A stretch of DNA of 64,000 bases from Nannobrachium achirus. Its lineage: Eukaryota; Chordata; Actinopteri; Myctophiformes; Myctophidae. Of the stretch, positions 432 to 62,253 are shown piece by piece. Below the pieces are notes generated by a model. That model was given only the letters and a program-made list of their open reading frames with translations. It was not told the origin of the DNA and made no database searches. Numbering within the stretch: the stretch's first letter is position 1; every line of letters starts with the position of its first letter. Where the stretch lies: positions 1,173,334-1,237,333 of the forward strand of contig OY997644.1 of the NCBI GenBank assembly GCA_963921795.1, given 5' to 3'. The position numbers and the translations under genes are program-made.

Positions 432-3400
432 GTGAGTAGAGGCTCTCTGAACAGTGAAGATACAGGAACACTGATTGTAGCTTAGCTTAGTTGTTCATTT
501 CCTGCCCAAGCTGGAAGTTACTTTGATCCATGGATGTCTGATCATGGACTACTCAGACCTACGATATGTATCGGGTAAATGCAGTTAACTGCCTGGTCGG
601 ATAGTTGTTGGTTCTCTAAATTTGACGGTAACACAAATTGTACCTTAAAGAATCTCTGTACACTCACAACCCAGCACATTTAGATAATACAACGTTCCCT
701 TGTTTGTGCTGTGCTGTGCTGTGCTGTGTGTGTGTGTGTGTGTGTGTGTGTGTGTGTGTGTGTGTGTGTGTGTGTGTGTGTGTGTGTGTGTGTGTGTGTG
801 TGTGTGCGTGTGCGACTGTGCGCGGGCGGCAGTGGCTCGGGTAGAGCAGCCGGATGGGAACCATGAGGTTCTCCGTTTGATTTCGGGCTCCCCCAGAGTT
901 AGTGTGGAAGAGTCCTTGAGCAAGACTCTGAACCCCTAGTTCATACATGGACAACTGGCGGCCCGGGGGCCACATGCGGCCCCCACCTTCACTTAATGCG
1001 GCCCGCTGGTTAATACCGGAATACTGACATATTATTGATTCCAGCTGTTACAATTCCAAACATGACCTGCTTTAATTCCGTCAGACTATATTAGTAGCTT
1101 AATGTCTAGTACTAGAAAGTCGCGCCGCAAGCGGCGCTCCTGTCTCTCCCCCCTCGCCACGTTGTTAACAGGAAAAGCTCTGTGAATGCATAGCAGGATC
1201 CAGGCAGAGGTGGAACATAATTCGACGGGTAACCAAATGTTGTGTAACTGGCTTCACGTTCGGTGGAAAACACGACACACCTCCCTCTGTTGTAATTCGA
1301 TACACTGCCCTCCGCTCACTCTCTCTACTCTCTCTACTCTCCACCCCCCCATCATCCCCTCACTGACTGTGCCTGTGAGGGGCACGTGCCTCTCTCTCTC
1401 TCTCTCTCTCTCTCTCTCTCTCTCTCTCTCTCTCTCTTTCTCTCTCTCTCTCTCTCCACGCGCGCTTCTGCACTCTCGGAGGGGCTGCGCTCTCTAGGGG
1501 TTGTGTGTGTGTGTGTGTGTGCGTGCGTGCGTGTGTGTGTGTGTGTGTGGCTACGCCCCCCTCTGTTGAAATTGGATCCGCCGGTCCCATAGCTGGGAAT
1601 GAGCCAATGGAGGGCTGTCACCATGTAGGGGCGGTATTCCTTACGTCCTAGACGCCGACTACCTATGAGTTGAAGTCGATGTAAAGGGGGCGTTAATGGG
1701 CGTGGAAGTGGGATGCGGCAATAGGAGGAATGTATATATAAGATAGTAGTATTAAAATGTATTTGTGTGTCTCAGAGTGTGATCCAGAGCTGTGTGAGTC
1801 AGACGTCCCTACGTGCAGGGAGGACCAGACTCTGATCGCCACCAGGGCTGATGGAAGCTGCTGTCTGGCATACATCTGCAGTGAGTTCTTTAAGTCATTG
1901 CTTCTCAAAGTGGGGTTCGGGGACCCCCAGGGGTCCTTGAGGGAGTTCCAGGGGGTCCCCAGCTCAATGATGGTGAACCAAATGGACCCTTATGGGTATG
2001 TAACTCAGAGAGTATACAGATGGAACCAAATGGATAACGGATCCATTTGGTTCCATTTGTACACTCTCAGAGTTAAATTAACATTGATTTTAATATATAA
2101 AGTGGGGTCTCAGAGATAGAAATATACCATTAAATGGAGGTCCATATCCCTAAATCATGTCAAACTGGGAGTCTTTGAAATTAAAATGGTTGGGAATCAC
2201 GGCTAGCTGTAAAAATCATCTCTTATGGGTGTCCGTGGCATATCTTTTCAAATGGGGGTCCGCGGGCTGATAAGTGTCAATTTGGGTGTCCTTGACATGA
2301 AAAAGTTAGAGAACCACTGCTTTAAGTGGTCAGATACGATGGATGGGCCGCAAACGCTTTAGAGATGTTCAAGTGCAGGGCCCTGATCTAGGAAAGGTGG
2401 AGAGCGACCATTTCTGGATCAGGGACAATCTCTAAAGCATTTTGTAACCACTTACTGTAACACATGGTGGCTGTCATTGCAAGTGGCCAGATGGGTGGGG
2501 TGTGTGAGTTTTCAGAGCATGTTTAACCCATTCAGAACGGGGACACATTTTGTGTATCATTATTTTATGCTTTAACTATTAAAAAATAGCAGATATACAA
2601 GCTCGCAAGCCGCGAGCCGCGCTGCGAGCTTGTAGATCTGCTATTTTTGAAAAATCGTGAAAATTTGATTCTATAAGTGTCTTTTGAATCCTTCTAATGT
2701 TTTTTGAAAAACCTATGTTTCTATGTCAGCATTCTGGCCGGCAATCGTCAAAGAAAAGGTCCTTTTCACTTAACTGGAGCTCAGTTAGTCTGTTCTTGAG
2801 AGACTACTATGTCAGTGGTTCTCAAACCTTTTCATGTGAAGGACCCCCATCTCAAAATATTTAGTTCCAGGGACCACCCAGAAGCAAAATTTGAGTTAAC
2901 AAACGTTCGCTTTGAAAATACATAATATTCAAAGATTTGCACACATTTTCACGACTTTTTCAAAAATAGCAGATCTATAAGCTCGCAGCGCGGCACTCGG
3001 TGCCACGCTGTGAGCTTGTATATCTGCTATTTTTCACTGGTTAAAGCAGTCAATACTTCTAGTGGGTTCCGGTGCCAATTACATCCAGGAACCTGATAGG
3101 AATTACAGTGGTGCTGCACCAAGGCCCCGTTATCACGTCCAAGGACGTGTTACCTGGTTACCAACGCAGCAGCGCCTGTTAATACAATATAACTTGTACA
3201 ATTGGGGTGGTTGAGACATTTAGATTGTGTCAAAGGTCATGACACGAAGATTCAATTTATCCCCAGAGCAAGCACAATGGTAAACATTTCAGCACTGGTG
3301 TAGAAGAGGAAAGTTACACGGTGCTGCTTAAATGTTATATTATCAATATAGTCTTAGGGCTGTATTTTGTTTGTCTTAAGTACCAGCTCTTATACTTAAA

Positions 3401-61696: not shown

Positions 61697-62253
61697 CAGG
61701 GACGTGCTGGCTATTGGGAAAAGCGGGACAACTCACGAACGGCCGGTTCATAACCGGCCATTAGGAAAAAAATAAAAATAAAATGTCGGCCTTCGTTCCA
61801 TTTTGGGGGCTGGGCGGCCAACAAAGTAAATCGTCACTGTCGGGCAGAAACCTCGTATCTCCAAGTTTCAAATGTATAAATATTTTCGCAAAGCAAAGCC
61901 CTGCTTCATCATATAAGGCCGTTGCACAAAAGTAGTGAAAACAGCAGATCTACAAGCACACAACGCCTCGACGTGCGAGGCGTTGTGTGCTTGTAGATCG
62001 GCTGTTTTCACTAGTTTAAATCATTTTTAAAATGATAAATACAAAACAAACGGTTTTGGACATACAAGGTTTCCACCCAACAACAACGAAATATAACTCA
62101 TGTAATTGGCCCACATGGCTTGTCACTTGTCATGATCTGAAATGGCAAATCTTTGAGTAGCAGCAGCGCTATAGAGAGATCTCTCTCTATAGCGCAATGA
62201 GGGCCTCTCCAACTCTTTTTCCCGGGCTGAATCAGGGGCCCAGCATGTCCCTG
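61697..62253. mobile_element. CAGGGACGTGCTGGC-family MITE, uninterrupted, exact TSD
   Basis: Flanked by GTTACAGT (61689-61696, 62254-62261). Inside is a complete TGTCGGGCAGAAACC unit with a hairpin (61930-62015) at its centre. Serves as the empty-site paralogue of 38479-40131. Confidence 0.92.

What the first reader, a model, noticed from the sequence alone, without database searches (positions are those of the whole stretch)
2583..62015. A shared 60-80-bp palindrome sits inside at least ten unrelated MITE families
Near-perfect hairpins with arm motif close to AATAGCAGATCTACAAGCTC and a variable GC-rich tip occur about 36 times, centred near 2615, 3003, 4634, 9797, 12768, 13105, 17649, 20478, 22052, 24757, 27335, 27917, 28759, 35646, 37846, 38340, 39855, 40998, 44037, 45820, 47551, 48240, 48556, 50132, 50358, 51700, 52245, 52350, 52585, 54378, 54995, 55320, 56798, 58290, 58710 and 61973. 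Their hosts have different ends (CAGTGGTTCTC, CAGGGGTGGGCAACT, TGTCGGGCAGAAACC, CAGGGTTCCCAC, AGGGCATTCACC, TAGGGCATTAACG, TAGGGCTGTCAC, CAGTGGTGTAAAG, CAGGGGCGTCAC, CAGGGACGTGC and others), many with exact 8-bp hAT-type duplications. The hairpin often lies near the element centre. Arms mostly agree while tips and adjacent stem bases vary by family. Either a small palindromic element targets the centres of other palindromes, or MITEs trade cores by template switching at hairpins. I know of no named system like this.
Basis: partly seen in the sequence, partly recalled or inferred. Interest (0 to 1): 0.87.

Follow-up and report, generated by a model that had tools for sequence, protein, structure and literature searches.

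The report
Shared hairpin inside unrelated fish MITEs
One short mirror-image DNA sequence sits inside many otherwise unrelated tiny jumping elements in a stretch of fish-like DNA, which suggests that such elements can pass internal parts to one another, probably through DNA-copying errors at hairpins.

Summary
The hairpin is real: 58 arm matches against 1-2 per shuffled window, 30 covariance-model loci at E<=1e-3, 17 of them training copies, and 93% of stem cells paired. It is one homologous module of about 70 bp, longer in some families, with a shared asymmetric mark. It lies in eight flank contexts, seven if C and E, joined by a bridging copy, count once. Most hosts look hAT-like (8-bp duplications); C has other ends and a 4-bp duplication. 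Hairpins also change by themselves: sister B elements carry the interior flipped, outer stem bases differ between families yet pair, and one D copy lacks the hairpin. These match published template-switching signatures. Best reading: a single-origin palindromic module moved among MITEs by template switching or patch repair, then was amplified by its hosts and by nesting. How a hairpin-free MITE gains it is not shown; a small transposon is a live rival. A control for the end/duplication search was weak. The genome could not be searched.

The parts
2571..3045 (.). Family A: two hairpins (2615, 3003) in inverted orientation; other A hairpins at 4634, 48240+48556, 50132+50358, 52245/52350/52585, 54995+55320
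   Evidence: arm scan and flank clusters
9640..10110 (+). Element E, left end CAGGGGTGGGCAACT (right end matches it at 10 of 14), duplication GTCTATGT 8/8, hairpin at 9754-9836
20334..20815 (+). Second E element (duplication 7/8), hairpin remnant at about 20478
12570..13063 (+). B core with a CAGGGTTCCCACAC-type right end (left end not found); hairpin 12720-12813 with the A mark on the left
21804..22358 (+). Sister of the above (95.6% and 88.6% identical flanks), CAGGGTTCCCAC ends, hairpin 22004-22096 in the opposite orientation
17303..17805 (-). B core inside TAGGGCATTCACC ends (duplication 7/8 in a CA-rich stretch), hairpin 17597-17690
45653..46115 (-). B core with CAGTGGTTCTC ends (duplication 7/8), hairpin 45783-45872, one arm scrambled
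47206..47776 (+). B core inside TAGGGCATTAACG ends, duplication CACCACAT 8/8, hairpin 47503-47596
24531..24909 (+). Element D, hairpin 24718-24794 with shortened tip
37698..38104 (-). Element D, ends CAGGCGTCTTCAAC, duplication TCATAGAC 8/8, hairpin 37801-37894
40487..40874 (+). D copy WITHOUT the hairpin; the site holds TATTCTG, which weakly resembles a right-arm residue; the site does not fold
   Evidence: alignment, residue test p=0.045, fold z=-0.59
28650..28880 (-). Element C alone: ends CGTCACTGTCGGGCAGAAACC, 4-bp duplication AAAG, hairpin at about 28759
61697..62253 (+). CAGGGACGTGC element (duplication GTTACAGT 8/8) with C element nested at 61832-62088 (duplication AAAT); hairpin 61926-62019
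39718..39958 (+). C element in a left-truncated CAGGGACGTGC-type element; same flanks and duplication AAAT as 61832-62088, so read as the same insertion; hairpin at 39855 with inner-arm deletion
27112..27465 (+). CAGTGTTTCTCAACC element (duplication 7/8) carrying a C-type core; hairpin at 27335 with the right arm lost
58160..58450 (-). C-type core, hairpin 58242-58335 with the A/G mark resolved to C-G
35393..37545 (+). Element F, ends CAGTGGTGTAAAG, duplication ACCCCTAC 8/8 (ends and duplication paired by me from the list); hairpin 35595-35688 flanked by the 8-bp direct repeat AAATGTAT
43704..44133 (+). Element G, CAGGGACGTGC ends (duplication 7/8), hairpin 43984-44085
50017..50468 (+). CAGGGGCGTCAC element (duplication 7/8) with two A hairpins (50132, 50358)
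52135..52692 (+). CAGGGGCGTCAC element, duplication TCTGAGAA 8/8, three hairpin copies (two of them single arms); in 52585 the outer mark is on the opposite arm
54203..54628 (+). Element H, TAGGGCTGTCAC ends (duplication 6/8), hairpin 54327-54421 flanked by the 9-bp direct repeat CACTATCAA
38289..38381 (+). Hairpin 38340 with one arm eroded; its right flank bridges the C and E flanks
40953..41036 (+). Hairpin 40998, outside the neighbouring D copy; flank resembles C and 38340

Best explanation
The hairpin is a single-origin palindromic DNA module (about 70 bp; by eye about 95 bp with an outer stem like CAAAAGTAGTG/CACTACTTTTG in C, H, 40998 and, modified, E) lodged inside at least seven otherwise unrelated MITE contexts of a vertebrate, probably teleost, genome. 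SHOWN: it is homologous across contexts; no consistent flank homology was found except for C, E, 38340 and 40998; hosts include MITEs with 8-bp and one with 4-bp duplications; interiors are flipped between sister copies; arms co-vary; one host copy lacks it. INFERRED: it entered new MITEs by replication or repair template switching (a nascent or broken strand invading a hairpin elsewhere and copying it with variable lengths of flank). After that the hosts' transposases and the nesting of hairpin-bearing MITEs in other MITEs multiplied it. Once resident, it keeps itself palindromic by template switching within the hairpin (arm homogenisation, stem extension into local flank, spacer inversion), so no selection on an RNA needs to be assumed. 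Which step brings a hairpin into a hairpin-free MITE is not shown.
For: Homology and compensated pairs: 93.1% of 620 cells paired, 16 of 38 pairs with changes on both sides, 0/500 shuffles reaching the observed covariation; one of the five measures, the number of pair types, is not raised (343/500 shuffles). Asymmetric mark at columns 21/84: 11 of 17 copies (B, C61973, D, E, F, G, H) keep the mismatch, 5 of 17 (all A copies aligned) have A-T, 1 (C58290) has C-G. Hairpin flip: 12768 and 22052 have 95.6% and 88.6% identical flanks in the same orientation, but their hairpins agree at 62/71 straight and 66/71 flipped. Of the ten B pairs nine fit two orientation classes and one is a tie, several by only 1-2 positions. 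In A the outer mark is on the opposite arm in 52585, 1 of 8 copies. Flanks: masked self-comparison and 25 flank clusters from 60 arms. Variable transferred length: 38340 against one E and two C copies and 40998 against C and 38340, five pairs with p 0.0015-0.0125 of twelve tested. C has 4-bp duplications AAAT/AAAG. Homology between arm pairs that share a flank stops within 30 bp of the arm in 33 of 84. Arm homogenisation and spacer inversion by template switching: PMC8604942 (passages); compensatory changes, stem extension, loop inversion: PMC8794818 (passages).
Against: No before/after pair shows gain: the only hairpin-free host copy (40487-40874) can equally be a loss, since its residue weakly resembles the right arm (p=0.045). 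Two hairpins have 8-9 bp direct repeats, as a transposed unit would (P=0.012 for >=2 of 24 outside tandem repeats; a first null that included tandem repeats gave P=0.46). Some cross-context flank similarity exists: 5 of 112 comparisons at p<=0.01. C61956 against F35625 stayed at 0/1000 on dinucleotide shuffling, while four other C copies against the same flank gave 8, 70, 166 and 211 of 1000. C against E directly is not significant (p 0.69-1.0, three pairs) and 40998 against E is not either (0.75). The end/duplication search also scores at 18 of 150 random centres, against 12 of 36 hairpin centres, at score 20, so the host ends are supportive rather than proven. Breakpoints within 30 bp could partly be element ends exposed by nesting. 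The flip classes were drawn from the same marks that they are scored on.
Confidence: 0.5

Rival explanations
1. The hairpin is itself a tiny palindromic transposon (like human MADE1, recalled), about 70-95 bp, that inserts into other MITEs with an 8-bp duplication and is then carried along.
For: Exact direct repeats AAATGTAT (8 bp) around 35646 and CACTATCAA (9 bp) around 54378; chance of >=2 in 24 = 0.012 outside tandem repeats; many contexts.
Against: 22 of 24 tested hairpins have no exact repeat of 8 bp or more within 25 bp. With tandem-repeat regions left in the null the result is unremarkable (P=0.46). By eye the implied unit ends differ between the two cases and are not inverted repeats of each other. 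The common unit length differs between contexts.
Confidence: 0.22
2. All hairpins descend from one ancestral MITE core; the ends were replaced by nesting, truncation and recombination, and the outer interiors diverged.
For: B cores with four kinds of ends and C in three settings are explained by nesting. C/E/38340/40998 share interior beyond the hairpin through bridging copies. The shared mark points to a single origin.
Against: A, B, D, F, G and H flanks differ right outside the stem with no consistent residual similarity, while hairpin arms of different contexts have a median identity of 0.87. Hosts include different duplication lengths, 8 bp and 4 bp.
Confidence: 0.2
3. The hairpin is kept or regained because it does something (small RNA precursor, protein-binding site, replication aid), and selection keeps it palindromic.
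For: Strong covariation and miRNA-like long stem; sub-threshold miRNA-type hits such as MIR2600 at 59 bits against a gathering score of 98 (one hairpin tested).
Against: No Rfam family reaches its gathering score in the window, and the sub-threshold hits are to many unrelated families. Many copies have lost an arm or the tip. Compensated pairs can come from template switching alone (PMC8794818, passages).
Confidence: 0.08

Closest known systems
Template-switch mutation at inverted repeats (arm homogenisation, spacer/loop inversion, stem extension; PMC8604942 and PMC8794818, passages)
   Same: Flipped hairpin interiors with unchanged flanks, the arm mismatch resolved in both directions, outer stem bases that differ between families yet pair
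   Different: There it acts within one locus; here the same hairpin is also found in unrelated mobile elements
Angel palindromic MITE of zebrafish (Izsvak 1999, seen only as described in PMC12628747, passages)
   Same: MITE of a teleost; stem-loop amplification proposed, with incorporation at sites of local homology
   Different: Angel is described as a MITE in its own right; here the palindrome is an internal part of several other MITEs. Sequences were not compared.
Palindromic elements of organelles (Volvox mtDNA/ptDNA, PMC2670323, passages)
   Same: Short selfish palindromes, often inserted into one another
   Different: Organellar with nuclear copies; in the passages read not described as carried by DNA transposons with ends and target duplications
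Modules shared between different mobile elements (V domain of SINEs in MER6, PMC6887750, abstract; tandem repeats captured by MITEs, PMC12628747, passages)
   Same: A short internal module is carried by a different kind of element and amplified by it
   Different: As described there, those modules are not hairpins shared by many MITE families

Membership tests
hAT-type MITE (as host; defining features recalled) | Short terminal inverted repeats with an 8-bp target duplication | tested here: met
   13 hairpin-bearing elements with paired ends and >=6/8 duplication, 6 exact; the search is permissive (18 of 150 random centres at score >=20 against 12 of 36); not met by C (4-bp)
hAT-type MITE (as host; defining features recalled) | Mobilised by a hAT transposase | not tested
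   No transposase gene was looked for; the genome was unreachable
Palindromic micro-MITE (MADE1/Angel-like), for the hairpin itself | Constant ends | tested here: not met
   Homology ends at different distances in different contexts
Palindromic micro-MITE (MADE1/Angel-like), for the hairpin itself | Target duplication directly around the unit | tested here: inconclusive
   2 of 24 hairpins; P=0.012 or 0.46 according to the null
Palindromic micro-MITE (MADE1/Angel-like), for the hairpin itself | Sequence related to Angel or MADE1 | not tested
   No eukaryotic repeat library available
Template-switch hairpin evolution | Arm homogenisation (mismatch resolved in either direction) | tested here: met
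   Mark at columns 21/84: A-T in 5 A copies, C-G in C58290, mismatch in 11
Template-switch hairpin evolution | Inversion of the interior with unchanged flanks | tested here: met
   B12768 against B22052 and the B classes, 9 of 10 pairs and one tie
Template-switch hairpin evolution | Stem extension copied from adjacent flank | tested here: inconclusive
   D outer stem pairs with host TTTTTGGC also present in the hairpin-free copy, but that copy may be a deletion product
miRNA precursor | Match to a curated family | tested here: not met
   0 gathering-level hits in the window; only sub-threshold hits for the one hairpin tested

The most novel reading that the evidence does not exclude
A vertebrate nuclear genome harbours a palindromic parasite of transposons: a 70-95 bp hairpin with no genes, no constant ends and no enzyme of its own, which spreads between unrelated MITE families, across transposon superfamilies, by hairpin-primed copying and lets MITEs exchange halves and cores, so that new MITE families are assembled around it.
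Probability: 0.3. Interest if true: 0.85.

Novelty: new variant of a known kind. Interest (0 to 1): 0.6.

Why it matters
How new MITE families arise, and how they gain interiors unrelated to any autonomous element, is an open question. A module present about once per 1.8 kb here (36 listed in 64 kb), in hosts of at least two duplication types, could be a natural experiment with very many replicates in one genome, if the window is typical: hairpin-free and hairpin-bearing host copies, flipped copies and chimeras could be counted directly. It would link replication template switching, known from single loci, to the birth and mosaic structure of transposon families.

Tried and rejected
Search of the window's own assembly: nine identical requests were unanswered, so every statement rests on one 64-kb window. 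Exact pattern scans: a 19-mer in viral contigs gave 0. The pattern was too short, and by my own estimate the viral number is what chance gives. A forward-strand check of the 171 records found no second arm within 80 bases upstream. Rfam: nothing at gathering level.

Targeting of palindrome centres was set aside as the main idea because the one hairpin-free host site does not fold (z=-0.59, 51 of 200 shuffles fold as well). The stricter automatic ends-and-duplication search found no candidate for 21 of the 36 centres; 15 had one, some of them plainly spurious. Its control is weak: candidates of any score at 77 of 150 random centres against 15 of 36, at score >=20 18 of 150 against 12 of 36, at >=21 18 of 150 against 9 of 36. 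The random centres avoid hairpins and three large satellites but may lie in hairpin-free MITEs. Several elements are therefore defined by flank comparison first. 15 of 75 arm matches were dropped by eye before clustering, all of them among the 16 at the 6-mismatch limit. A hairpin-free copy of the CAGTGGTGTAAAG family was sought at 16087-17031; the alignment was too poor to decide. Pfam was run on 8 reading frames only to place the window: myogenic bHLH exons; three weak or repeat-driven hits in the minisatellite frame were disregarded. That it is a teleost is my inference. Literature: nine of ten searches used. In the listings I saw no paper on one hairpin shared by several MITE families, but only open-licence papers are held and repeat libraries were not searchable.
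Full report
What is there. The window is vertebrate, most likely teleost: a myogenic bHLH gene lies at about 55.9-58.1 kb (Pfam Basic, HLH and Myf5 domains), and the DNA is dense in microsatellites. 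The 20-base arm is found 58 times with up to 5 mismatches, against 1, 2 and 1 times in three Markov shuffles. A covariance model made from 17 copies recovers 30 separate loci at E<=1e-3 (the 17 by construction) and 32 of the 36 listed loci at E<=0.05. 48240 is at E=0.14, and 51700, 52245 and 52350 are missed. Seven copies folded as DNA have z-scores between -8.9 and -18.4.

It is one module. Seventeen copies from eight contexts align from arm to arm including the tip. Between contexts the identity over columns 13-92 has a median of 0.81 (0.70-0.96, 118 pairs), for the arms alone 0.87 (0.79-0.96). Of 620 pair cells 93.1% are standard pairs and 16 of 38 pairs carry changes on both sides. None of 500 shuffles reaches the observed covariation score, although the number of pair types is not raised. 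At columns 21/84 11 of 17 copies (B, C61973, D, E, F, G, H) keep an arm mismatch, the 5 A copies have A-T and C58290 has C-G. A mismatch shared by so many families points to one origin. Just outside the universal arm (columns 9-12) the bases differ between most families (C and H agree) and still pair in 12 to 16 of 17 copies per column.

Its hosts. With hairpins masked, self-comparison gives separate families. Anchored extension of 60 outward arms gives 25 flank clusters, 8 with several members and 17 singletons, at a score of 12 (null of 600: 99th percentile 4.8, highest 23.2). I name the contexts A to H. Ends with target duplications support E (CAGGGGTGGGCAACT), D (CAGGCGTCTTCAAC), F (CAGTGGTGTAAAG), G (CAGGGACGTGC), H (TAGGGCTGTCAC), B with CAGTGGTTCTC ends, and CAGGGGCGTCAC elements with two or three A hairpins. 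In all, 13 hairpin-bearing elements have duplications of at least 6/8, 6 of them exact. The random centres may lie in hairpin-free MITEs, so this is no clean null, but the weaker cases should not be leaned on. Element C differs: its ends are CGTCACTGTCGGGCAGAAACC and its duplication is 4 bp, AAAT in two copies that share flanks and AAAG in an independent, reversed insertion. So the hairpin is probably not confined to hAT-type elements.

Nesting inflates the host list. C lies inside CAGGGACGTGC elements (61697-62253; a left-truncated one at 39677-40131), inside a CAGTGTTTCTC element (27112-27465), and alone at 28650-28880. The B core, by eye about 50 bp left and 35-110 bp right of the hairpin, lies inside TAGGGCATTAACG, TAGGGCATTCACC, CAGGGTTCCCACAC and CAGTGGTTCTC ends. 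In 12768/22052 a CAGTGGTTCTC end is still visible in the interior. Such cases need no special mechanism. What does need one is the presence of the same hairpin in A, B, C/E, D, F, G and H, whose adjacent sequence is otherwise unrelated as far as tested.

How unrelated. Among 112 comparisons of 148-bp flank pieces between the eight contexts, 5 had p<=0.01 by simple shuffling. On dinucleotide shuffling C61956/F35625 stayed at 0/1000, but four other C copies against the same F flank gave 8, 70, 166 and 211 of 1000. Four other pairs gave 1, 2, 8 and 33 of 1000 over scattered, gapped matches. I regard these as inconclusive, not as zero. C and E are linked by a bridging copy: 38340 matches the flank of E9784 and of two C copies (p 0.0025-0.0035), and 40998 matches C61956 (0.0015) and 38340 (0.0125). 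C against E directly is not significant (0.69-1.0), 40998 against E is not (0.75), and H against C and against 38340 is not (0.07, 0.60); these are simple shuffles. Thus some transferred segments probably exceed the hairpin.

It changes by template switching. 12768 and 22052 are sister elements with 95.6% and 88.6% identical flanks in the same orientation, but their hairpins agree at 62 of 71 positions when read straight and 66 of 71 when one is inverted. The arm mark and the loop reverse together. Nine of the ten B pairs fit two orientation classes (12768, 45820; 22052, 17649, 47551) and the tenth is a tie; some margins are only 1-2 positions and the classes were read off the same marks. In family A the outer GATATAC/GATCTAC mark is on the opposite arm in 52585, one of eight copies compared, while its inner marks are not reversed. 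Arm homogenisation and spacer inversion are described as products of template switching between inverted repeats in PMC8604942 (passages); compensatory changes, stem extension and loop inversion in PMC8794818 (passages). This is the best-supported part of the mechanism.

Gain and loss. A D copy without hairpin (40487-40874) reads CTCTTTG-TATTCTG-TTTTTGGC where the others carry the hairpin between CTCTTTG and TTTTTGGC; the site does not fold. Either the hairpin entered here, its left outer arm being copied from the host's TTTTTGGC, or it was lost: TATTCTG resembles the right arm's TAGATCTG (p=0.045). The data do not decide. Direct repeats of 8 and 9 bp flank the hairpins of F35646 and H54378, 2 of 24 tested. 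Outside tandem repeats the chance of two or more is 0.012; with tandem repeats left in, 0.46. Neither figure is corrected for the choice of window and length. They keep the small-transposon rival alive. Among 84 arm pairs that share a flank, homology stops within 30 bp of the arm in 33, at 31-60 in 13, at 61-100 in 15 and beyond 100 in 23, as expected if breakpoints gather near the hairpin, though nested ends could contribute.

Judgement. Shown: one homologous hairpin module in eight MITE contexts (seven if C and E count once), hosts with two duplication lengths, internal flips and compensated stems. Inferred: movement between MITEs by template switching or patch repair, followed by amplification with the hosts. 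Rivals are a small palindromic transposon, descent with replaced ends, and selection on a functional hairpin. Known relatives in kind are the Angel MITE (as described in PMC12628747, passages), the palindromic elements of Volvox organelles that are often inserted into one another (PMC2670323, passages), and the V domain of SINEs carried by the MITE MER6 (PMC6887750, abstract). In what I read, none of these has one hairpin inside many unrelated MITEs. The whole genome could not be searched, so copy number, the age of each gain and the rate of flips remain open.

Noticed in passing
13549-14869: A 30-bp minisatellite of 44 copies (96% matches) lies in an open frame (13423-15027 +) that reads VENGTI(V/M)LHK over and over, an N-G-T in every repeat, after an exon-like cysteine-rich start.
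   Followed up: no
28650-28880; 39718-39958; 61832-62088: Element C: inverted ends CGTCACTGTCGGGCAGAAACC with 4-bp target duplications, superfamily not identified.
   Followed up: partly
50017-50468; 52135-52692; 2571-3045; 48186-48601; 54956-55360: Family A elements carry two (or three) hairpins in inverted orientation with a CAGTGGTTCTC-like end buried between them; their outer modules differ beyond about 25 bp from the hairpin.
   Followed up: partly
52143-52372: About two tandem 108-bp copies, each with a single hairpin arm, next to G-rich runs.
   Followed up: no
5038-7071: Large 46/84/168-bp minisatellite.
   Followed up: no
58160-58450: A C-type hairpin element lies shortly 3' of the last MyoD-like exon frame (57756-58082).
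   Followed up: no
35393-37545: Element with CAGTGGTGTAAAG ends (resembling Tol2-type ends, recalled) and exact duplication ACCCCTAC, 2.15 kb between the ends, presumably grown by insertions.
   Followed up: no
701-812; 11418-11918; 15574-15663; 25655-25794; 41320-41400; 60008-60113 and others: Many long (CA)n/(GT)n microsatellites, which by recollection would fit a cod-like fish; the species was not determined.
   Followed up: no
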